A DNA stretch of 64,000 bases from Cedecea davisae DSM 4568 (lineage in GTDB: Bacteria > Pseudomonadota > Gammaproteobacteria > Enterobacterales > Enterobacteriaceae): contig NZ_KE161030.1 of the NCBI RefSeq assembly GCF_000412335.2, forward strand, positions 282,014-346,013, written 5' to 3'. The translations under genes were made by a program, and so were the position numbers. A model generated the notes under the pieces. It did not search any database. It saw nothing but the letters and a program-made list of their open reading frames with translations, and was not told the origin of the DNA. Shown piece by piece: positions 21,440 through 38,138 of this stretch; the first letter of the stretch is position 1, and every line of letters begins with the position of its first letter.

Positions 21440-22927
21440 ATGCGATACATCCAGATCCACCCCCGGGACAATGTTGCCGTCGCGCTGGTAGACCTGCCGG
21501 AGGGAGAGACGATAACGTTCGGGCAAAGTGAATTTTCGCTGCCCCAGCCGGTAGCTCGTGGGCACAAATTTGCCCTTCGTGCGCTCGCCGCCGATGAAAA
21601 TGTTGTGAAGTATGGCCTGCCGATAGGCCATACGCTGTCTACGATCGCCGTCGGCGAGCATCTGCATTCGCATAACCTGCGCACCAACCTTAACGACGTT
21701 GATGAGTATCGCTATCAGCCTGAATTTCTCTCTGCGTGCAAACGGACGAGCGATCGCGAAGTTAATCTTTATCGCCGGGACAACGGCGCGGTGGGCGTGC
21801 GCAATGAGCTATGGATCCTGCCAACCGTCGGCTGCGTAAACGCCATAGCGCGCCAGATGCTGAACCGCTTTTTGAAGCAGACCAACGACGCGGAAGGCAT
21901 TGACGGAGCGTATCTGTTCAGCCACCAGTTCGGCTGTTCCCAGCTGGGAGACGATCACCTCAACACCCGTACCATGCTGCAAAATATGGTGCATCATCCT
22001 AATGCCGGAGCGGTGCTGGTGGTGGGGCTTGGGTGTGAAAACAATCAGATAGCCGCCTTTTGCGAAACGCTGGGCGAGTATGACCCGAGCCGCGTGCGTT
22101 TTATGGCTTTGCAGCAGCAGGATGATGAAGTTGAGGCGGGGCTGGAGCACCTTCACGCCCTGTATCAGGTTATGCGCCACGACACCCGCCAGCCGGGCCG
22201 GCTCAGCGAGTTGAAGTTCGGCCTTGAATGCGGCGGCTCCGATGGTCTTTCCGGCATTACGGCCAACCCAATGCTGGGCCTCTTTTCCGACTATGTGGTG
22301 GCGAACGGCGGCACCACGGTGCTGACGGAAGTGCCGGAAATGTTTGGCGCAGAACGCATTCTGATGAGCCACTGTCGCGATGAAGAAACGTTTGAGAAAA
22401 CTGTCGCCATGGTTAACGACTTCAAACGCTATTTTATCGAGCATCACCAGCCGATTTACGAAAACCCTTCTCCGGGAAACAAGGCGGGCGGCATCACCAC
22501 GCTGGAAGAGAAATCCCTCGGCTGCACGCAGAAAGCCGGAGGCAGCCAGGTTGTTGACGTGCTGCGCTACGGAGAGCGGCTAAAAGAGGCCGGGCTGAAC
22601 TTGCTTAGCGCGCCCGGAAATGATGCGGTAGCGACCAGCGCGCTGGCCGCAGCGGGCTGCCATATGGTGCTGTTCAGCACCGGGCGCGGCACGCCTTATG
22701 GCGGCTTTGTGCCCACGTTGAAAATCGCCACTAACAGCGAGCTGGCGGAGAAAAAACCGCACTGGATTGATTTTGACGCCGGGCGCCTGCTGCACGGCAG
22801 CACCATGCCAGAGCTGCTGGAGCAGTTTATTGATGTAATTGTTCGCACGGTAAACGGGGAAAGCACCTGCAACGAGAAAAACGACTTCCGCGAGCTGGCG
22901 CTGTTTAAGAGTGGCGTAACGCTTTAG
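21440..22927 (+). CDS. uxaA: Altronate dehydratase
   Basis: Dehydrates D-altronate to 2-keto-3-deoxygluconate in galacturonate catabolism; Fe-dependent. It has 495 residues, as in E. coli: SAF domain (about 1-85), then the UxaA catalytic domain with the conserved GCSQLGDDHLNTRTMLQN and LGCENNQ motifs. It follows uxaC closely. uxaB is not adjacent, which is also so in E. coli. Confidence 0.96.
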   Translation: MRYIQIHPRDNVAVALVDLPEGETITFGQSEFSLPQPVARGHKFALRALAADENVVKYGLPIGHTLSTIAVGEHLHSHNLRTNLNDVDEYRYQPEFLSACKRTSDREVNLYRRDNGAVGVRNELWILPTVGCVNAIARQMLNRFLKQTNDAEGIDGAYLFSHQFGCSQLGDDHLNTRTMLQNMVHHPNAGAVLVVGLGCENNQIAAFCETLGEYDPSRVRFMALQQQDDEVEAGLEHLHALYQVMRHDTRQPGRLSELKFGLECGGSDGLSGITANPMLGLFSDYVVANGGTTVLTEVPEMFGAERILMSHCRDEETFEKTVAMVNDFKRYFIEHHQPIYENPSPGNKAGGITTLEEKSLGCTQKAGGSQVVDVLRYGERLKEAGLNLLSAPGNDAVATSALAAAGCHMVLFSTGRGTPYGGFVPTLKIATNSELAEKKPHWIDFDAGRLLHGSTMPELLEQFIDVIVRTVNGESTCNEKNDFRELALFKSGVTL

Positions 22928-27306: not shown

Positions 27307-30479
<3,173 letters not shown>

Positions 30480-30592: not shown

Positions 30593-31783
30593 TCAGGTAT
30601 GCGCTTCCTGCAACAGCTTCTGTATTACCTGCTCTTGCTGCTCATAGTTGCCTTCGCCGAACGAGACATTGCGTAGCTGGCCGCGGGCGTCAAAGTAATA
30701 GTGAGCGGGCCAGTATTGGTTGCCGAACGCATTCCAGATTTGGTAGTTGTTGTCGGTGACCACCGGGTACGGCAACTGCCACTTAGCCACCGCTTTTTTC
30801 ACCGAATCGAGATCTTTTTCCCACGGATATTCCGGCGTATGAACGCCAATCACCACCAGTCCCCGATCTTTGTACTTATTCGCCCACTCGCGGACGTGCG
30901 GCAGAGAATGCTGGCAGTTAATGCAGTCGAAGGTCCAGAAGTCGATAAGCACCACCTTGCCCTTCAGCGCTTCGGGCGTTAGCGCCGGGCTGTTTATCCA
31001 GGCCGTTCCTCCCGCCAGCGAAGGCATGGCGCTGCTCGGGGCTGTATCGACGATGGGCTGTAGCTTTGGTGCTGTCGTCGTTACGGGGGAAAGCGCTAAT
31101 AAACGTTGCTCCAGCTTCGCACCCGCGCCGTTAGCATTTTGTAGTGCCGAAGTGGTGCCGGAGGCGATAAGGACTACCGTTGCCAGCATCGCAACCCCGG
31201 CCACGCGGCGCAGCTGCTCCATCAGCGCCATTTTTTCACGCAGGCGAGCCAAAATCCGGTAGCCGCAAAACCACAACAGAGCCAGCATCAGCGCGCAGCC
31301 TGAACCATAGGCGGCAAGCAACAAACCGGCGGCCACCGTCGAGGAGCCGGACAGGCCGATGCCGAGGATGGCACCCAGGATTGGCCCCGCGCAGGGGGAC
31401 CAGAGCAGGCCGACGGCCAGCCCGGCCAGAAATGCCGACAGCGTGCCGCGAGTGCGATTGCTTTTGTCGTTGATGGCGTTACCCAACTGCACGGCGGGGC
31501 GCGTAATCCGCCCGGCGAGGTGAGGGAAGATTAGCGTCAGGGCGGCAAGCGCCAGCATTGCCAGGGCGACCCAGCGGCCAACCAGCGTAGCCTTAACAAT
31601 CCACTCTCCGGCGGCAGTCACCAGCAGGGCAACGGCGGTAAACATGCTTACCATCCCGAGAAAAAGAGCGGCAATTTGCTGCTTCTTGCCCCTAAATGCG
31701 GCGAAAAGTAACGGAATGACGGGCAGGGTACAGGGGCTTAATAAACTCAGTATGCCGCCAAGAAAGGCAATCAGAACGGTCAT
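30593..31783 (-). CDS. DipZ-type fused CcdA/DsbD membrane protein with periplasmic thioredoxin domain
   Basis: Predicted electron carrier from cytosolic thioredoxin to a periplasmic thioredoxin-like domain. Of 396 residues, about 1-215 form a CcdA/DsbD-type bundle with the paired cysteines Cys18 (SPCTLP) and Cys131 (SPCAGP). A linker follows. From about 255 to 396 there is a TlpA/AhpC-like domain with redox motif CINC (287-290). The ATG at 31783 follows GAGG; a GTG four codons earlier is the alternative. It lies downstream of a histidine kinase gene in the same direction and carries a RATACA tandem motif upstream. The substrate is unknown. The other DsbD-like proteins have an extra N-terminal domain, missing here. 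Confidence 0.85.
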   Translation of the reverse strand: MTVLIAFLGGILSLLSPCTLPVIPLLFAAFRGKKQQIAALFLGMVSMFTAVALLVTAAGEWIVKATLVGRWVALAMLALAALTLIFPHLAGRITRPAVQLGNAINDKSNRTRGTLSAFLAGLAVGLLWSPCAGPILGAILGIGLSGSSTVAAGLLLAAYGSGCALMLALLWFCGYRILARLREKMALMEQLRRVAGVAMLATVVLIASGTTSALQNANGAGAKLEQRLLALSPVTTTAPKLQPIVDTAPSSAMPSLAGGTAWINSPALTPEALKGKVVLIDFWTFDCINCQHSLPHVREWANKYKDRGLVVIGVHTPEYPWEKDLDSVKKAVAKWQLPYPVVTDNNYQIWNAFGNQYWPAHYYFDARGQLRNVSFGEGNYEQQEQVIQKLLQEAHT

Positions 31784-31901
31784 AACACACCTCACGGTTA
31801 AAGGATGATTGAATGGCTCGGGCCATTAAAACGTCCTGATGTGTTCGCGGTATGTGGGGAAACCGGCCTGATTGTCAGTTTGTTTGTCGCCGTCGTGCAG
31901 G

Positions 31902-31917
31902 CATACAGAGCGATACA
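31902..31917 (-). promoter_or_regulatory. Tandem motif CATACA-GAGC-GATACA upstream of dipZ-like gene
   Basis: Two six-base units 10 bp apart, the geometry expected for a head-to-tail OmpR-type dimer. It sits 118 bp upstream of the dipZ-like ATG, at the end of the kinase gene. A copy with the same spacing lies upstream of the hydrolase gene at 35137. Confidence 0.55.
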
Positions 31918-31918
31918 A

Positions 31919-33223
31919 TCACGCGATCGGCAGGGTAATGCTGGCCTTCAGCCCGCCCTGCGGCAGGTTAGCGAGGGTTAACGAGCCGCCCAGTTGGCCG
32001 ACGAGTTGAGCGGCAATAGCCAGCCCCAGCCCGGTGCCGCCGGTATCGCGGTTTCTTGAATTTTCGATGCGGTAAAACGGCTGTAACACCGCGCTAAGCT
32101 CTTCATCGGGGATGCCGGGACCGTTATCGGTAATCGTCAGCGTGACCTGATTTTCACCCTGGCGTTCCAGGCTCAGTTCAGCGGCAGTGCCGAATTTCAA
32201 TGCGTTATCCAGCAGGTTGGTCAGGATACGGCGCAGCGCCTGCGGGCGGGTCGAGAGCGCAAGCGCTGCCTGAGGTGCGGCAAACTGCACCGGCTTACCC
32301 ACGTCCTGGTAGTCGCAGGCCAGGCTGTCGACAAAGGCTCTCAGTTCGATACGTTGCTGCGGTTCTTCAAGCGTTTCTGAGGATCTCGCATAGGCGATGC
32401 CTTCGCGCACCAGATGGGTCATGTTGTCGAGATCCTGCATTAGCTTGTCGCGTAGCTCCGGCTCGTCGCTCATTTCCAGGCGCAGCTTCATGCGGGTGAT
32501 CGGCGTTTGCAGATCGTGAGAGATCGACGCCAGAATTTGCGTACGTTCTTTCAGGTGCATCTGGATCCGCGCCTGCATGGCATTAAACGCTTTGGCGGCA
32601 TGTTGTACTTCAACCGGGCCGCTCTCCGGCATGGCGGAAGGGGCCGATGCCGCAGGCTCCAGCGCCTCTACTGCATGGGTAAAGCGGGTAAACGGCAGGA
32701 CAACCTGGCGCACCGCAAACCACGCACACAGCGCTAATAGCAGGAGCTGAATAACAATTACCACCGGCAGCCAGCTCTCAATCGGCGGCATTCTCGGCGT
32801 GATATCAATCGTGAGCGGAGAGCCGTCGGCCAGGGTCAAATGAGCCTGAACGTGCGATGCCGCACCGGGCAGGGCGGTAAAATTCAGCGCGTAGCTGCCG
32901 CCGAGCGCTTCTTTTAGCGAGTTAATTGCATCTTTTGAACGCTCGTCGACGGGCGTTTTCCCCGGCGTGCCCGGCCCGAGAATATAGTGATAATTTTCGC
33001 GCGCCAGGCGCTCAAGCCATCCCGGGCGTTCGTCTGCCGGAAGCTTGTCGAGAATTGCCACGCTGGTGGCAACGTTGTTTTGCAGATTATCCAGCATGAC
33101 GTTTCGGGCGCTGCTCATGCGCTCGGCGGTCGTCAGCGAGAGCGTCAGCGCGTTTGCGAGCACCAGTCCCAGCAAAACGATGAGAAACAGGCGGTAGAGC
33201 AGGGAGCGTGGCCAGAGCCTCAT
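31919..33223 (-). CDS. Two-component sensor histidine kinase
   Basis: Inner-membrane EnvZ-like kinase of 434 residues. TM1 at about 10-30, a periplasmic sensor of about 120 residues without recognisable fold, TM2 at about 151-171, HAMP to about 225, H-box SISHDLQTPITR with His236, N-box near NLLDNALKFG, G-boxes DNGPGIP and GGTGLGLAI. All catalytic motifs are intact. It shares the ATGA overlap with the upstream response regulator gene. The signal is unknown; neighbours suggest an envelope redox or chemical stress. Confidence 0.9.
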   Translation of the reverse strand: MRLWPRSLLYRLFLIVLLGLVLANALTLSLTTAERMSSARNVMLDNLQNNVATSVAILDKLPADERPGWLERLARENYHYILGPGTPGKTPVDERSKDAINSLKEALGGSYALNFTALPGAASHVQAHLTLADGSPLTIDITPRMPPIESWLPVVIVIQLLLLALCAWFAVRQVVLPFTRFTHAVEALEPAASAPSAMPESGPVEVQHAAKAFNAMQARIQMHLKERTQILASISHDLQTPITRMKLRLEMSDEPELRDKLMQDLDNMTHLVREGIAYARSSETLEEPQQRIELRAFVDSLACDYQDVGKPVQFAAPQAALALSTRPQALRRILTNLLDNALKFGTAAELSLERQGENQVTLTITDNGPGIPDEELSAVLQPFYRIENSRNRDTGGTGLGLAIAAQLVGQLGGSLTLANLPQGGLKASITLPIA

Positions 33224-33960
33224 TCTCGCGCCTCGACAATCACCACCGGGACGGAGAGCACGTAGCCTTCGCTGCGCACGGTTTTGATATAGGCCGGCGT
33301 TCGCGCGTCTTCATTCAGGCGCTGACGCACGCGGCTTACCAGCAGATCGATAGAACGCTCGAATAGCTCGGCGTCGCGGCCCTGCGTCAGGTTTAAAAGC
33401 TGATCCCGGGACAGCACGCGCTGAGGGTGATCCAGAAATACGCGCAGCAGGCGATATTCCGCGCCGCTAAGCGCGACAATGGTGCCCTGATGGTCAATCA
33501 GGTGGCGGGCTGAAGTATCAAGCTGCCATTCGCCGAAAGCGATGATCCGCCCGGCTTCGGTAACCTGCAAATTAGGCGGCAGGGCGCGGAAACGGCGCAG
33601 GATCGCCTTGATCCGTGCCAGCAGCTCGCGGGCGACAAAGGGTTTGACCACGTAGTCGTCGGCACCCATTTCCAGGCCGAGGATCCTGTCCGTATCTTCG
33701 TTTCTTGCGGTCAGCATCAGGATCGGCAGGTCTTTATGTTTGTCGCTGCGCAGCTGGCGGCACAGCGTCAGCCCGTCGTCGCCCGGCATCATGACGTCCA
33801 GCACCACTAAATCGACGTGCTGCTTATCCAGCGTCGCCCGCATCTCTTTACCGTTGGCCGCACCGCTAGCGCGGTAGCCGGACTTCTCCAGATAGCTGAC
33901 AATGAGTTCGCGAATGTCGCGGTCATCGTCCACAACGAGAATATGATCAATGTGTTCCAC
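33220..33960 (-). CDS. OmpR-family response regulator
   Basis: 246 residues: receiver domain with acidic pocket DDD (11-13), phospho-acceptor Asp55 (LVVLDVMMPG) and the Lys of VVKPF near 105; then a winged-helix trans_reg_C domain (about 140-240) with FERSIDLLVSRVRQRL as recognition helix. Close in type to KdpE/OmpR but no E. coli orthologue comes to mind. Cotranscribed with the kinase (4-bp overlap). Probable target sites are the tandem RATACA motifs upstream of the hydrolase and dipZ-like genes. Confidence 0.92.
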   Translation of the reverse strand: MEHIDHILVVDDDRDIRELIVSYLEKSGYRASGAANGKEMRATLDKQHVDLVVLDVMMPGDDGLTLCRQLRSDKHKDLPILMLTARNEDTDRILGLEMGADDYVVKPFVARELLARIKAILRRFRALPPNLQVTEAGRIIAFGEWQLDTSARHLIDHQGTIVALSGAEYRLLRVFLDHPQRVLSRDQLLNLTQGRDAELFERSIDLLVSRVRQRLNEDARTPAYIKTVRSEGYVLSVPVVIVEARE

Positions 33961-34040
33961 CTGGGGCTCCTGGCGCTAAAAAATGGGGGGCTGAAACCAG
34001 CATAGCCGCTCGCTGCGGAACGGCCGTGCTTCTTTTTGTA

Positions 34041-35024
34041 CTACAGCTTGCTGGCATCCACCACTGCCTTAACAAAGGCCTCCGGTGCTTCCTGCGGCGG
34101 GTTATGACCGATATTGCCGCTGAAGGTGCGGTGCTCGTACTTGCCGGTAAACTTTGCGGCATAGGCTTGCGGTGCAGGATGCGGCGCGCCGTTGTTATCC
34201 CCTTCGATGGTGATAGTCGGCACGCTGATGTTCGGCAGCGCCGCCAGCTTTTCCTCGTCTGCCGCGTATTTCTGCTCACCGTTTTCCAGCCCCTGACGCC
34301 AGCGATAATTACTTAACGTAATGGCGACGTGGTCCGGGTTATCCAGCGATTTGGCGCTGGTGTTAAACGTCTCGTCGCTGAACTTCCAGCCCGGAGAAGC
34401 CTGCTGCCAGATAAGTTTGGCGAAGTCGTGAGTATTCTGCGCATAGCCCGCCGCGCCGCGCGGAGTCGCGAAATAGAACTGATACCACCATTGCAGCTCG
34501 GCCTTCGGCGGCAGCGGTTTTTTGCCCGCCTGTTGGCTACTAATCAGATAGCCGCTGACCGAGACCAACGCTTTAACTCGCTCAGGGTGCAGCGCCGCGA
34601 CGATATCTGCGGTGCGTGCGCCCCAGTCATAACCGGCGAATACCGCCTGCCTGATATGCAGCGCGTCCATTAGCGCCAGGGTGTCGTCTGCAATCGCGAC
34701 CGGCTCGCCGTTACGTGGCGTGGTGGCCGAAAGGAAGCGAGTGCTGCCGAAGCCGCGCAGGTCAGGGACGATAACCCGGTAGCCCTGCTTCGCCAGCTCC
34801 GGCGCTACCGTGGCGAAGCTGTTGATGTCGTAGGGCCAGCCGTGCAGGAGAATAACCGGCTGGCCGTCTTTCGGGCCGAGGTCGACATAGCCGACGCTCA
34901 GCACGCCCGCATCGATCTGTTTTATCTGCTTTGAGTCAAAACCAGCAGCTTCCGCCTGGCAGGCGAAAACCACCGAGAGGAAAAGTGGAGCAATCAGTGC
35001 AGACAGGGTGAGTTTGTTGAACAT
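34041..35024 (-). CDS. Exported alpha/beta hydrolase (epoxide hydrolase / dehalogenase type)
   Basis: 327 residues. A signal peptide (about 1-27, ending AEA) predicts a periplasmic location. The alpha/beta-hydrolase core shows HGWPYD (61-66, oxyanion hole), PDLRGFGST and the nucleophile elbow GYDWGA with Asp123. An aspartate nucleophile is typical of epoxide hydrolases and haloalkane/fluoroacetate dehalogenases rather than esterases. The catalytic His is in NIGHNPPQEAP near the C-terminus. GGAG eight bases before the ATG. It lies 80 bp upstream of the response regulator gene. Natural substrate unknown. Confidence 0.85.
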   Translation of the reverse strand: MFNKLTLSALIAPLFLSVVFACQAEAAGFDSKQIKQIDAGVLSVGYVDLGPKDGQPVILLHGWPYDINSFATVAPELAKQGYRVIVPDLRGFGSTRFLSATTPRNGEPVAIADDTLALMDALHIRQAVFAGYDWGARTADIVAALHPERVKALVSVSGYLISSQQAGKKPLPPKAELQWWYQFYFATPRGAAGYAQNTHDFAKLIWQQASPGWKFSDETFNTSAKSLDNPDHVAITLSNYRWRQGLENGEQKYAADEEKLAALPNISVPTITIEGDNNGAPHPAPQAYAAKFTGKYEHRTFSGNIGHNPPQEAPEAFVKAVVDASKL

Positions 35025-35136
35025 GATGTTTTCTCCGAAGCCGTAACAAAGTGTTTGGCTATCACATCATGGGATTGTAGGCGGCGTGTTTTCCAAACCA
35101 CCCTTTTTGCATGGCGGCGTATCTGGCCGGGTTCTG

Positions 35137-35152
35137 GATACAGTGTGATACA
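35137..35152 (-). promoter_or_regulatory. Tandem motif GATACA-GTGT-GATACA upstream of hydrolase gene
   Basis: A perfect direct repeat with 10-bp period, 112 bp upstream of the hydrolase ATG and upstream of a plausible minus-strand TACAAT -10. It matches the 31902 motif in sequence, orientation and distance to the start codon. Confidence 0.6.
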
Positions 35153-35166
35153 AAGCGGTTTGTTTT

Positions 35167-35209: not shown

Positions 35210-36790
35210 TTACACCGGCGTTCTTGGCGCAAGCCCCGGAGCCTGCCACATCGAGGTCGTTAAGCCGCTGTCCACCAACGTCAACTGGTCGGCATAAACC
35301 TTCTGCCATTTGTGTTTCATTTCGTTGTACAGTTCGCGGTGCTCCGGATTTGGCGTGAATTCGCGCTGCCACTGCACCAGGCTTTCTCCCGTAGCGGCCA
35401 GCGAGTCAAACAGCCCGGCCCCCACGCCCGCCGCAATGGCGCAGCCTAATGCCGTTGCCTCTTTAACCACCGGAACGCGAACCGGCAGCCCGGTTACGTC
35501 GCTAAGGATCTGGCTCCAGAGCGCACCTTTTGAGCCGCCTCCGGCAAACACCAGCGAATCAAATTTTACCCCTGAAAATCCGGATATTTGTTCGAGATTG
35601 CAGGCCGAAACAATTGCCGCATTCTCTTCAAGCGCGCGGAACAGCGTCGCCTTGTTGCATTTCTCAGGGTCAATGGAGAGGTTAATAAACGACGGCGCGG
35701 CGTGATACCACTGCTTGAAATGCATCGCGTCGGAGAAAATCGGCATCACGCCGTGGGAGCCTGCCGGAACGCGGCTGGCCATCTCTTCCATCAGGGCGTA
35801 AGTGTCTACGCCCAGCCGCTCGGCCAGCAGCTTTTCTTCCGCGCAGAAGGCGTCCCGGAACCAGCGCATCGTCAGGCCGGTAAAGAAGCTGATGGACTCC
35901 GCCTGCACCATATTTTGGATGACGTGCGGGTTAATGCGGATGTTCATTTCCGGATCGGTTTTGATCGCCGGAAGGTTAACCACCTGCTGCCAAAAAGTCC
36001 CGCCCAGCACCGCGGTTTGCCCCGCTCTGACAATGCCCAGCCCGAGGCACCCAAGCTGCACGTCGCCGCCGCCCATCACTACCGGCGTGCCTTTCAGCAG
36101 GCCGCTTTCCTCTGCCGCCTGTTGCGTCACGCCGCCAAGCACCGTCCCGGTTTCTTTCACCGGGGAAAGAATATCTGCCCGCAGCCCGGCCATATCCAGC
36201 AGCGCGGGGCGCCAGTCTCTGGTCGCCAGATCAAGCATGCCGGTGGTGCCAGCATTAGAAGGATCAACGGCCAGCTCGCCGGAGAGTCTGGCCGCCAGCC
36301 AGTCGCTGATCATCGTGACGGTTGCGGCGTTGCGATAAATATCCGGGCGATGATGAGCCAGCCACAGCAGGCGCGGCATGGCGCTCAGGGCAAGCGTCTG
36401 GCCGGAAACGTGATACACCTCGGACTCAAACCGGAAGTCGTGGATCTCTTTAAGCTCGCTGACCTCGCGGCTGGCGCGGGCATCAACGTTGGCGCAGGCC
36501 CAGATAGGTTCACCGCCGCTGTCGTACAGCACGATCCCTTCGCGCATGGAACAGCAGGAAACCGCGCTAATCGCGGCGGAGGAAAGATTGGCTTTATGCA
36601 ACGCTTCGCGAATGCAGCGGCAGGTTAGCTGCCAGTTGACGGCAAGATCGAACTCCATAGAGCCCGGCACATTATCCACGCTGAGATGCTTCCACTCTGC
36701 CTGGCCGACGGCAATCTGCTGGCCTGCGGTATCGAAGATAACGGCGCGAATGCTGCCCGTCCCGGCGTCCAGTGCAAGTAAATAACTCAT
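35210..36790 (-). CDS. lsrK: Autoinducer-2 kinase LsrK
   Basis: FGGY-family kinase that phosphorylates the AI-2 precursor DPD in the cytosol, trapping it. It has 526 residues from the ATG at 36790; homology to E. coli LsrK runs full length ([17 protein letters not shown] at the start, [13 protein letters not shown] mid-protein, [14 protein letters not shown] near residue 435). Of two ATGs six bases apart, the second (36790) has AGAGG at the better distance; the first is at 36796. Divergent from lsrFG, while lsrR and lsrACDB that normally lie between are missing. Confidence 0.94.
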
Positions 36791-36913
36791 TAGCATGCCT
36801 CTTGCGTCATCCGTTCAATAGATAAACTCTTAGCCATAGCGAGCGATCTGACCGATCTATTTGAATGTTTTGTGATCGCTGCACGGTTGCAATCGCCGAT
36901 CCATGACTAAGTT

Positions 36914-36937
36914 TTTGAACACTATCTGTTATTCAAA
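36914..36937. promoter_or_regulatory. Possible remnant LsrR operator between lsrK and lsrF
   Basis: Imperfect palindrome TTTGAACA ... TGTTATTCAAA, 24 bp before the lsrF ATG. It resembles TGAACA-type half-sites I associate with LsrR. The whole 36791-36960 gap is only 170 bp and shows no leftover lsrR or lsrB coding sequence. Confidence 0.3.
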
Positions 36938-36960
36938 GACGAATTCCGGGAGAGGACATC

Positions 36961-37851
36961 ATGGCAGATCTGGATGACATCAAAGACGGAAAAGACTTCG
37001 GCATTGGCCGTCCGCAGGAGAACCGGGCCTTTTACCTGAAGGGTAGCGGCGCGCTGGACTGGGGCATGCAGTCGCGGCTGGCGCGCATTTTCAATCCGGA
37101 CACCGGGCGCACCGTGATGCTGGCTTTTGACCACGGCTATTTTCAGGGGCCGACCACCGGGCTGGAACGTATCGACCTGTCCATCGCCCCGCTGTTTCCT
37201 GAAACCGATGTGCTGATGTGTACCCGCGGCATCCTGCGCAGCGTAGTGCCTCCGGCCACCAACAAACCCGTGGTGCTTAGGGCTTCCGGCGGGAACTCAA
37301 TTCTTAGCGAGCTCTCTCGCGAGAGCGTGGCCGTCACTATGGAAGATGCGCTGCGCCTGAACGCCTGCGCGGTGGCGGCGCAAATTTATATTGGCAGCGA
37401 ATATGAGCACCAGTCGATCAACAACATCATCAAGCTGGTGGATGAAGGAACCCGCTACGGCATTCCTACGCTGGCGGTTACCGGCGTAGGCAAAGAGATG
37501 ACGCGTGACGCCCGCTATTTTTCGCTGGCGAGCCGCATTGCGGCTGAGCTTGGCGCGCAGTTCGTGAAAACCTACTTTGTAGAAGAAGGCTTTGAGAAAG
37601 TAGCGGCCAGTTGCCCGGTGCCGATAGTCATCGCCGGAGGCAAAAAGCTGCCGGAGCTGGAAGCGCTGGAGATGTGCTTTAAGGCGATAGACCAGGGCGC
37701 GTCCGGCGTGGATATGGGGCGCAATATCTTCCAGTCAGAAGCCCCGCTCGCCATGCTACAGGCGGTGAAAAAGGTGGTTCACGAAAACTTTTCCGCCCGG
37801 GAGGCTTATCAGCTATGGCTTGAAGCAAAACATCAGGGAGTGAAAGCATGA
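36961..37851 (+). CDS. lsrF: 3-hydroxy-5-phosphonooxypentane-2,4-dione thiolase LsrF
   Basis: Class I aldolase-fold enzyme that transfers an acetyl group from isomerised phospho-AI-2 to CoA, ending AI-2 breakdown. It has 296 residues, near the E. coli 291; [13 protein letters not shown] matches its start and the catalytic lysine region [13 protein letters not shown] is at about residues 219-231. GGGAGAGGA precedes the ATG. It overlaps lsrG by 4 bp. In E. coli it is preceded by lsrACDB; here it is the first gene. Confidence 0.95.
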
Positions 37852-38138
37852 ACGTGACGCTGGTAGAGATAAACATTAAGCCCGAACGCGTGGACGAGTT
37901 TCTGGAAGTGTTCCGCGCCAATCACGAAGGGGCGATTAAAGAGCCGGGAAACCTGCGTTTTGACGTGTTGCAGGACCCGGAAGTTGCCACGAGGTTTTTT
38001 ATTTACGAAGCTTATCAGGATGACGACGCGGTGCTGGCGCATAAGAAAACCCCGCACTATCTGGCCTGCGTTGAGAAGCTGGATGAGATGATGTCGGAGC
38101 CGCGTAAGAAGCGGAGTTTTATCGGACTGCTGCCTTAA
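37848..38138 (+). CDS. lsrG: (4S)-4-hydroxy-5-phosphonooxypentane-2,3-dione isomerase LsrG
   Basis: ABM-fold enzyme that isomerises phospho-AI-2 to the LsrF substrate. It has 96 residues, as in E. coli, with conserved [11 protein letters not shown] (41-51) and [14 protein letters not shown]. Translationally coupled to lsrF by the ATGA overlap. Followed immediately by the palindromic repeat array at 38145. Confidence 0.95.

What the first reader, a model, noticed from the sequence alone, without database searches (positions are those of the whole stretch)
31902..35152. Two copies of a 10-bp-period tandem motif upstream of hydrolase and DipZ-like genes
CATACA-GAGC-GATACA (31902) and GATACA-GTGT-GATACA (35137) have the same orientation, spacing and nearly the same distance to the start codons they precede (118 and 112 bp). 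The genes they precede lie at the two ends of a block containing an OmpR-family regulator, a family that typically binds direct repeats with about 10-bp period. This predicts one regulator and a two-promoter regulon. I did not notice a third copy while reading the window.
Basis: partly seen in the sequence, partly recalled or inferred. Interest (0 to 1): 0.7.

Follow-up and report, generated by a model that had tools for sequence, protein, structure and literature searches.

The report
Shared three-part promoter of BfmR-type regulon
The two repeats are the outer part of a roughly 80-base control element that marks promoters next to, and far from, a BfmR-like regulator gene in many Proteobacteria, pointing to one shared set of probable envelope-protection genes whose trigger is still unknown.

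Summary
Both repeats lie at the stated positions, upstream of the alpha/beta-hydrolase and DipZ-like genes on the - strand, flanking an OmpR-family regulator and its kinase. They are the only two ATACA-N4-GATACA matches in the 4.89-Mb genome. With at most one mismatch the repeat is in 74 of 80 loci of other named species and 25 of 26 genus/family loci; the reversed control gives 0.

The repeat is one arm of a conserved ~80-bp promoter: box A, inverted half-box B at +29, block C at +61/+72. A model built without the window finds both window promoters and a third, unlinked one before a BhsA-like/hydrolase/DUF2282/MNIO operon. At E<=0.001 it hits 23 of 23 family genomes with the regulator and 1 of 272 without.

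The box is not new: it matches the P. aeruginosa BfmR motif TACAA-N3-GATACA (PMC8025907, PMC4148453; passages read). What looks new is the three-part layout and a recurring target set (DipZ, hydrolases, OsmC/Ohr, DUF6130, MNIO) across alpha-, beta- and gammaproteobacteria. Signal unknown; no binding measured.

The parts
35137..35152 (-). Box A of the hydrolase promoter, TGTATC-ACAC-TGTATC (direct repeat, 10-bp period)
   Evidence: conserved in relatives
35075..35155 (-). Whole composite promoter of the hydrolase gene as scored by model R1 (44.4 bits, E 6.8e-11)
   Evidence: G000:C1:317088-317168 converted with the stated window offset
35118..35123 (-). Inverted half-site B of the hydrolase promoter (GATACG), +29 from box A
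35105..35112 (-). Distal part of block B (ATGCAAAA), hydrolase promoter
35074..35092 (-). Block C of the hydrolase promoter (AAAACACG ... CCTACAAT); its downstream half may double as the -10 (inferred)
31902..31917 (-). Box A of the DipZ-like promoter, TGTATC-GCTC-TGTATG (one mismatch)
   Evidence: conserved in relatives
31836..31920 (-). Whole composite promoter of the DipZ-like gene as scored by model R1 (34.2 bits, E 1.1e-7); it begins at the very end of the kinase gene
   Evidence: G000:C1:313849-313933 converted
31883..31888 (-). Half-site B of the DipZ-like promoter (GACAAA), +29 from box A; a weak match
31870..31877 (-). Distal part of block B (TGACAATC), DipZ-like promoter
31839..31857 (-). 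Block C of the DipZ-like promoter (CCACATAC ... GAACACAT)
34041..35024 (-). Alpha/beta hydrolase (Abhydrolase_1), predicted target; the N-terminus looks like an export signal (not tested)
33220..33960 (-). OmpR-family response regulator (Response_reg + Trans_reg_C), BfmR-like
31919..33223 (-). Sensor histidine kinase (HisKA + HATPase_c); predicted periplasmic domain resembles RisS
30593..31783 (-). DipZ-like protein (DsbD_TM + AhpC-TSA/Redoxin), predicted target; ATG at 31783

Best explanation
The two repeats are operator halves of a BfmR-type two-component system. Inferred working: the kinase senses an envelope stress and phosphorylates the regulator. A regulator dimer binds box A (TTTGTATC-N4-TGTATC). 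Further dimers bind the inverted half-box B about 29 bp downstream and block C, 61-77 bp downstream, next to or over the -10. Together they activate the hydrolase-regulator-kinase genes (autoregulation), the DipZ-like gene, and an unlinked BhsA-like/hydrolase/DUF2282/MNIO operon. The products suggest protection of the envelope: thiol reduction (DipZ), hydrolases and an MNIO/DUF2282 peptide system, with OsmC/Ohr added in relatives. Shown here: conservation, fixed spacing, co-occurrence with the regulator gene, recurring target families. Taken from papers: binding of P. aeruginosa BfmR to the same core motif and activation of its targets. Inferred: that this regulator belongs with BfmR, activation rather than repression, stoichiometry, the position of the -10, operon limits, and the nature of the signal.
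For: Box with <=1 mismatch in 74 of 80 and 25 of 26 loci, reversed control 0. Over 114 nonredundant sites, at least 5 of 6 letters with one base of slack: GATACA at +29 in 77, GACACA at +61 in 76, GATACA at +72 in 77; control offsets average about 1.4-1.5 with maxima of 6-9. Model R1, from 83 promoters without the window, scores the window promoters at 44.4 and 34.2 bits and a third site at 36.5; the next hit is 13.9. R1 at E<=0.001: 23 of 23 genomes with the regulator, 1 of 272 without; at E<=0.01 with more candidates scored: 22 of 22 against 1 of 15. Unlinked promoters precede recurring families: BhsA-like/hydrolase/DUF2282/MNIO, DUF6130 plus hydrolase, OsmC, hydrolase. P. aeruginosa BfmR: motif TACAA-N3-GATACA, three footprints in the bfmR promoter, and loss of phoB induction when GACACA is deleted (PMC8025907, PMC4148453; passages). 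L114 has regulator>kinase>Ferric_reduct>DoxX then <DUF2063<MNIO, the order described for bfmRS-PA4103-PA4107. In 90 regulators, 14 of the 16 positions 200-215, which I take for the recognition helix, are at least 98% conserved.
Against: 28 of 114 nonredundant boxes did not reach my threshold for the composite (86 did); 6 of 80 loci have no box. Some promoters match only from block B on: ohr in G001, G004 and G006 (model 31-87) and single hits in G115, G024, G169, G175 and G258 (starting at 24-29), so box A is not needed everywhere. ohr of this type was not found in the window's genome, whose best match is 45% identical. In L032 and L033 the gene after the kinase is the OYE enzyme, with no box at <=1 mismatch. 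15 of the 23 regulator-bearing genomes supplied rows to R1, so their hits are partly by construction; the window's genus supplied none. The count of 1 in 272 has limits: only 15 candidates per genome at most were scored, with stricter filters; 103 of the 272 are genomes under 3 Mb (my count's list); 'without' means no match at E<=1e-90 among the 9 or fewer candidates scored. In the window's own genome 150 of 566 candidates were scored, so weaker sites may be missed. P. aeruginosa BfmR itself was not compared letter by letter.
Confidence: 0.85

Rival explanations
1. Box A alone is the operator; blocks B and C are ordinary promoter parts (-35 and -10) that are conserved because the promoters share ancestry.
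For: Block B has TTGCAA- or CTGACA-like sequences resembling a -35 in several promoters, and the downstream hexamer of C reads TATACAT or TACAAT in some enterobacterial promoters.
Against: B and C carry GATACA/GACACA, the core of box A, at fixed distance and in one orientation (0 of 114 have TGTATC at +29). The -35-like hexamer of B lies about 26 bp from C's last hexamer, too far for a sigma-70 promoter (general knowledge). Some promoters keep B and C but lack A. BfmR protects three regions of one promoter.
Confidence: 0.25
2. Another OmpR-family regulator of the same genome, not the neighbouring one, is the main binder.
For: The genome has 47 candidate stretches resembling the regulator at first look, only one of them at E<=1e-60, and in P. 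aeruginosa BfmR shares promoters with CzcR and PhoB.
Against: The promoter tracks this regulator gene, 23 of 23 against 1 of 272 genomes, although the 11 listed genomes of 4 Mb or more without it show 20-46 such candidates. The one exception carries a truncated regulator gene.
Confidence: 0.06
3. Chance resemblance or a repeat without regulatory role.
For: In the window alone, 4 of 100 shuffles reach the count of loose matches.
Against: Conservation at comparable places across three proteobacterial classes, with 0 matches for the reversed control.
Confidence: 0.01

Closest known systems
BfmR of Pseudomonas aeruginosa (PA4101) and its binding motif
   Same: OmpR-family regulator beside its kinase; the motif TACAA-N3-GATACA has a 10-bp period and both window sites match it at 10 of 11 fixed letters; several GATACA sites per promoter; an operon with a DUF692 (MNIO) gene is a major target (PMC4148453, PMC8025907, PMC4053335; passages read).
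   Different: The window system adjoins an alpha/beta hydrolase and a DipZ-like gene instead of PA4103-PA4107. The passages seen do not describe a fixed three-part promoter or a DipZ/hydrolase/OsmC target set. The quorum-sensing and biofilm roles reported there were not tested here.
EnvZ/OmpR
   Same: Same protein families; the kinase and the regulator score best against these models among those listed.
   Different: Both fall below the equivalog cut-offs (regulator 249.5 of 331 bits, kinase 180.7 of 415).
RisS periplasmic sensor domain of Burkholderia
BfmRS of Acinetobacter baumannii
   Same: Shares the name (search listing only).
   Different: A different system as far as I recall; not compared here.

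Membership tests
OmpR/PhoB-type response regulators | Receiver domain plus winged-helix Trans_reg_C domain | tested here: met
   PF00072 and PF00486 over their cut-offs
OmpR proper (EnvZ/OmpR equivalog) | NCBIfam NF007005 curated cut-off of 331 bits | tested here: not met
   249.5 bits
BfmR group | Orthology to P. aeruginosa PA4101 | tested here: inconclusive
   The PA4101 sequence was not at hand. L114 (Pseudomonas wayambapalatensis), 70-71% identical to the window regulator, lies in the gene order described for bfmRS-PA4103-PA4107; the tree holds only this family and has no outgroup
BfmR group | Target promoters carry TACAA-N3-GATACA / GATACA cores | tested here: met
   Both window sites match 10 of 11 fixed letters, TACAG for TACAA
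BfmR group | Protein binds these sites in vitro | not testable with these tools
   Needs purified protein; reported for P. aeruginosa BfmR in PMC4148453 (passages)
BfmR group | Control of biofilm and rhl quorum sensing | not tested
   Not examined for the window's organism
RisS-type periplasmic sensor domain | Same fold | tested here: inconclusive

The most novel reading that the evidence does not exclude
A single envelope-protection regulon, run by BfmR-type regulators, is spread over alpha-, beta- and gammaproteobacteria. It is recognised by one ~80-bp three-site promoter of fixed geometry and links periplasmic thiol reduction (DipZ/TlpA), alpha/beta and epoxide hydrolases, OsmC/Ohr, DUF6130, BhsA-like proteins and MNIO-modified (bufferin-type) peptides. 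The biofilm and quorum-sensing roles known from P. aeruginosa would then be a derived layer on an older stress response to an oxidant, electrophile or copper-like signal.
Probability: 0.5. Interest if true: 0.75.

Novelty: new variant of a known kind. Interest (0 to 1): 0.6.

Why it matters
In the papers seen, BfmRS is studied as a biofilm and virulence switch of P. aeruginosa with an unsettled signal and 174 ChIP peaks. A composite promoter that can be scored in any genome separates a small conserved core of targets from these, can be studied in soil and plant bacteria, and gives functional hints for orphan families (DUF6130, the hydrolases, DUF2282/MNIO operons). It turns the question of what the kinase senses into a reporter test.

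Tried and rejected
Chance was not excluded by the window alone; conservation settled it. The simple 16-bp pattern misses the third promoter, so exact patterns understate the regulon. Four exact matches in regulator-bearing genomes lie away from the module; judged by eye three (L064, L072, L074) lack blocks B and C and were set aside as chance, the fourth (L075) has them. A chlorite or hypochlorite signal was looked for in print: PMC9751292 (passages) tabulates an OmpR-family regulator and hydrolases near chlorite dismutase genes, but has 0 occurrences of DipZ, redoxin, organic hydroperoxide and two-component; PMC7950407 (passages) has 0 occurrences of PA4103, PA4106, PA4100, efhP and copper. 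PMC8719888 (passages) cites others for DUF692/DUF2063 in metal or oxidative stress. The signal stays open. blastn of the region finds no match in 20,395 E. coli records. Among 85 kinases the periplasmic part has no conserved Cys and one well-kept His (H128, 88%), so no metal-type cluster is evident. Novelty of the layout and the target set rests on ten searches: no listed paper was seen to report them, but only open-licence papers are held and all but the six read in passages were seen as listings.

Of the 14 unlinked ones, 3 precede a family seen elsewhere in the set (L249 OsmC; L250 and L261 hydrolase), 2 have one further downstream (L247 MNIO, about 1.4 kb; L259 DUF2063, about 2.3 kb) with no first gene resolved, 1 precedes a cupin (L253), and 8 gave no clear first gene with my simple ORF caller.

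Rows dropped before counts: one search reduced 156 boxes to 114 by likeness and left out L049; R1 used 83 of the 86 promoters over the threshold (the two window rows and one L042 row left out).
Full report
Observation. The window reads as described. The two repeats lie upstream of the alpha/beta hydrolase (34041-35024) and the DipZ-like gene (30593-31783); between them lie the regulator (33220-33960) and the kinase (31919-33223), all on the - strand. The gaps of 112 and 118 bp are right (start codons). The 31902 copy has one mismatch. In the whole genome ATACA-N4-GATACA has two matches, these two, and its reversed control none. In the window with two mismatches allowed there are 7 matches against 3.28 expected, reached by 4 of 100 shuffles, so the case rests on conservation.

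Conservation. All 8 genomes of the genus that were searched carry the regulator at 97-100% identity. In the family 23 of 295 sampled genomes, in 14 of 154 genera, have a close regulator (E<=1e-90). The box is there with at most one mismatch in 25 of 26 genus and family loci (L004-L029). In 80 loci of other named species (Lelliottia, Enterobacter, Pseudomonas, rhizobia, Microvirga, Burkholderiales, Lysobacter and others; regulator 65-90% identical, the best 80 of a capped list) it is there in 74. The reversed pattern gives 0 matches in both sets. Exact box by regulator: 20 of 23 genomes with, 33 of 272 without (Fisher p about 5e-14). Leaving out 103 genomes under 3 Mb, the second figure is 25 of 169 (p about 5e-12).

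The larger element. I aligned 114 nonredundant boxes (of 156) without gaps. Conserved blocks lie at fixed distances. A is TTTGTATC-nCAn-TGTATC. B is GATACA at +29 followed by TGCAAAA or TGACAAA at about +41, i.e. an inverted and degenerate copy of the box. C is GACACA at +61 and GATACA or TATACA at +72. Counts with at least 5 of 6 letters and one base of slack are 77, 76 and 77 of 114, against means of about 1.4-1.5 and maxima of 6-9 at control offsets; CAAAA at +43 (4 of 5 letters) is in 58, control mean 2.8, maximum 11; TGTATC in the opposite orientation at +29 is in 0 of 114. 86 of 114 passed a combined threshold, 28 did not. The window promoters follow the layout, the hydrolase one more closely than the DipZ-like one.

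Genome-wide test. A sequence-only model (R1) from 83 promoters, window left out, finds three sites in the window's genome: the hydrolase promoter (44.4 bits), an unlinked site at G000:C1:896364-896442 (36.5 bits) and the DipZ-like promoter (34.2 bits); the next hit has 13.9 bits and is the hydrolase promoter region read on the other strand (150 of 566 candidates scored). The third site precedes a BhsA-like gene, an alpha/beta hydrolase, a DUF2282 gene and an MNIO (DUF692) gene. Over 295 family genomes at E<=0.001, R1 hits all 23 with the regulator and 1 of 272 without. With more candidates scored and E<=0.01 the figures are 22 of 22 and 1 of 15; I chose these 15, some because they hold the exact box. 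The exception in both, G169, carries a truncated regulator gene. Limits: 15 of the 23 genomes supplied rows to R1 (rows of G251 and G263 were dropped as near-duplicates; the window's genus supplied none), and one search scored at most 15 candidates per genome with stricter filters.

Regulon. Unlinked promoters in relatives precede DUF6130 plus hydrolase (G244, G150, G198), OsmC/Ohr (G001, G004, G006; blocks B and C only), the first hydrolase (G175, G258; from block B on) and a BhsA-like gene plus hydrolase (G018) (Pfam for some of these, the rest by likeness to proteins scanned). The ohr gene of this type was not found in the window's genome (best 45% identity). In 14 genomes of other groups R1 gives 3 to 11 matches each at E<=0.001, some overlapping on both strands. 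I read 20 of these regions: 5 are the regulator's own locus, 1 is near one, and of 14 unlinked ones 3 precede OsmC or a hydrolase, 2 have MNIO or DUF2063 genes further downstream, 1 precedes a cupin and 8 were not resolved. Beside the regulator itself the genes found with or near boxes include DipZ/TlpA, hydrolases, DUF6130, epoxide hydrolase, OsmC and MNIO genes.

Known relatives. A paper search for GATACA led to P. aeruginosa BfmR. In passages of PMC4148453 BfmR protects three regions of its own promoter, each with GATACAnnGC, and binds the PA4107 and PA4103 promoters; seven genes at or near the locus rise more than tenfold without BfmS. In passages of PMC8025907 the ChIP motif from the top 30 peaks is TACAA-N3-GATACA, and deleting GACACA from the phoB site removes the induction. 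PA4107-PA4105 encode an EF-hand, a DUF692 and a DUF2063 protein (passages of PMC4053335). In Pseudomonas wayambapalatensis (L114) the relative of the window regulator is followed by a kinase, a ferric-reductase-like and a DoxX gene, with DUF2063 and MNIO genes facing them behind a box; in L121 an EF-hand gene stands in about the PA4107 place. This is the described bfmRS neighbourhood. In 90 regulators 14 of 16 positions in 200-215 are at least 98% conserved. Enterobacterial regulators form one clade beside Pseudomonas and rhizobial ones (no outgroup). I therefore call the window system BfmR-like; PA4101 itself was not aligned.

Mechanism. Binding of the regulator to box A is likely; binding to B and C follows from their sequence and from the three BfmR footprints. 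Activation is inferred from P. aeruginosa. The sensor domain models well (mean pLDDT 86) and resembles RisS weakly; no metal-type Cys/His cluster is seen in its periplasmic part, only one well-kept His. The signal is unknown; the targets suggest envelope redox, electrophile or copper stress, which is inference.

Verdict. The motif belongs to a known type. The three-part promoter, the third operon and the cross-class target set are the parts not seen in print in ten searches of an open-licence library.

Noticed in passing
window 35210-38138: lsrK (-) stands next to lsrF (+), followed by a small ORF at 37848-38138 that I take from memory for lsrG; no transporter or lsr regulator gene lies between lsrK and lsrF.
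   Followed up: no
L204 (G169): The regulator gene is truncated and runs into what looks like hydrolase sequence, yet part of a composite promoter (model 27-84) survives: probably a decayed copy of the module.
   Followed up: partly
L032 and L033 downstream of the kinase; window 28440-30470: The OYE/FadH-like flavoenzyme that follows DipZ in the window directly follows the kinase in two relatives, without DipZ and without a box.
   Followed up: partly
L087:5887-5930, L119:5890-5934; for L089 and L122 one search lists both boxes too: Two boxes face each other upstream of the regulator, one pointing at it and one away, so one composite could serve both directions.
   Followed up: no
L160 (CP125156.1): A 5.37-Mb Klebsiella pneumoniae record filed as a plasmid; its size suggests a chromosome. 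It carries the hydrolase-regulator-kinase genes.
   Followed up: no
window 21444-21459: GATACATCCAGATCCA, a one-mismatch match on the + strand, is not among the promoter model's hits and is probably chance.
   Followed up: no
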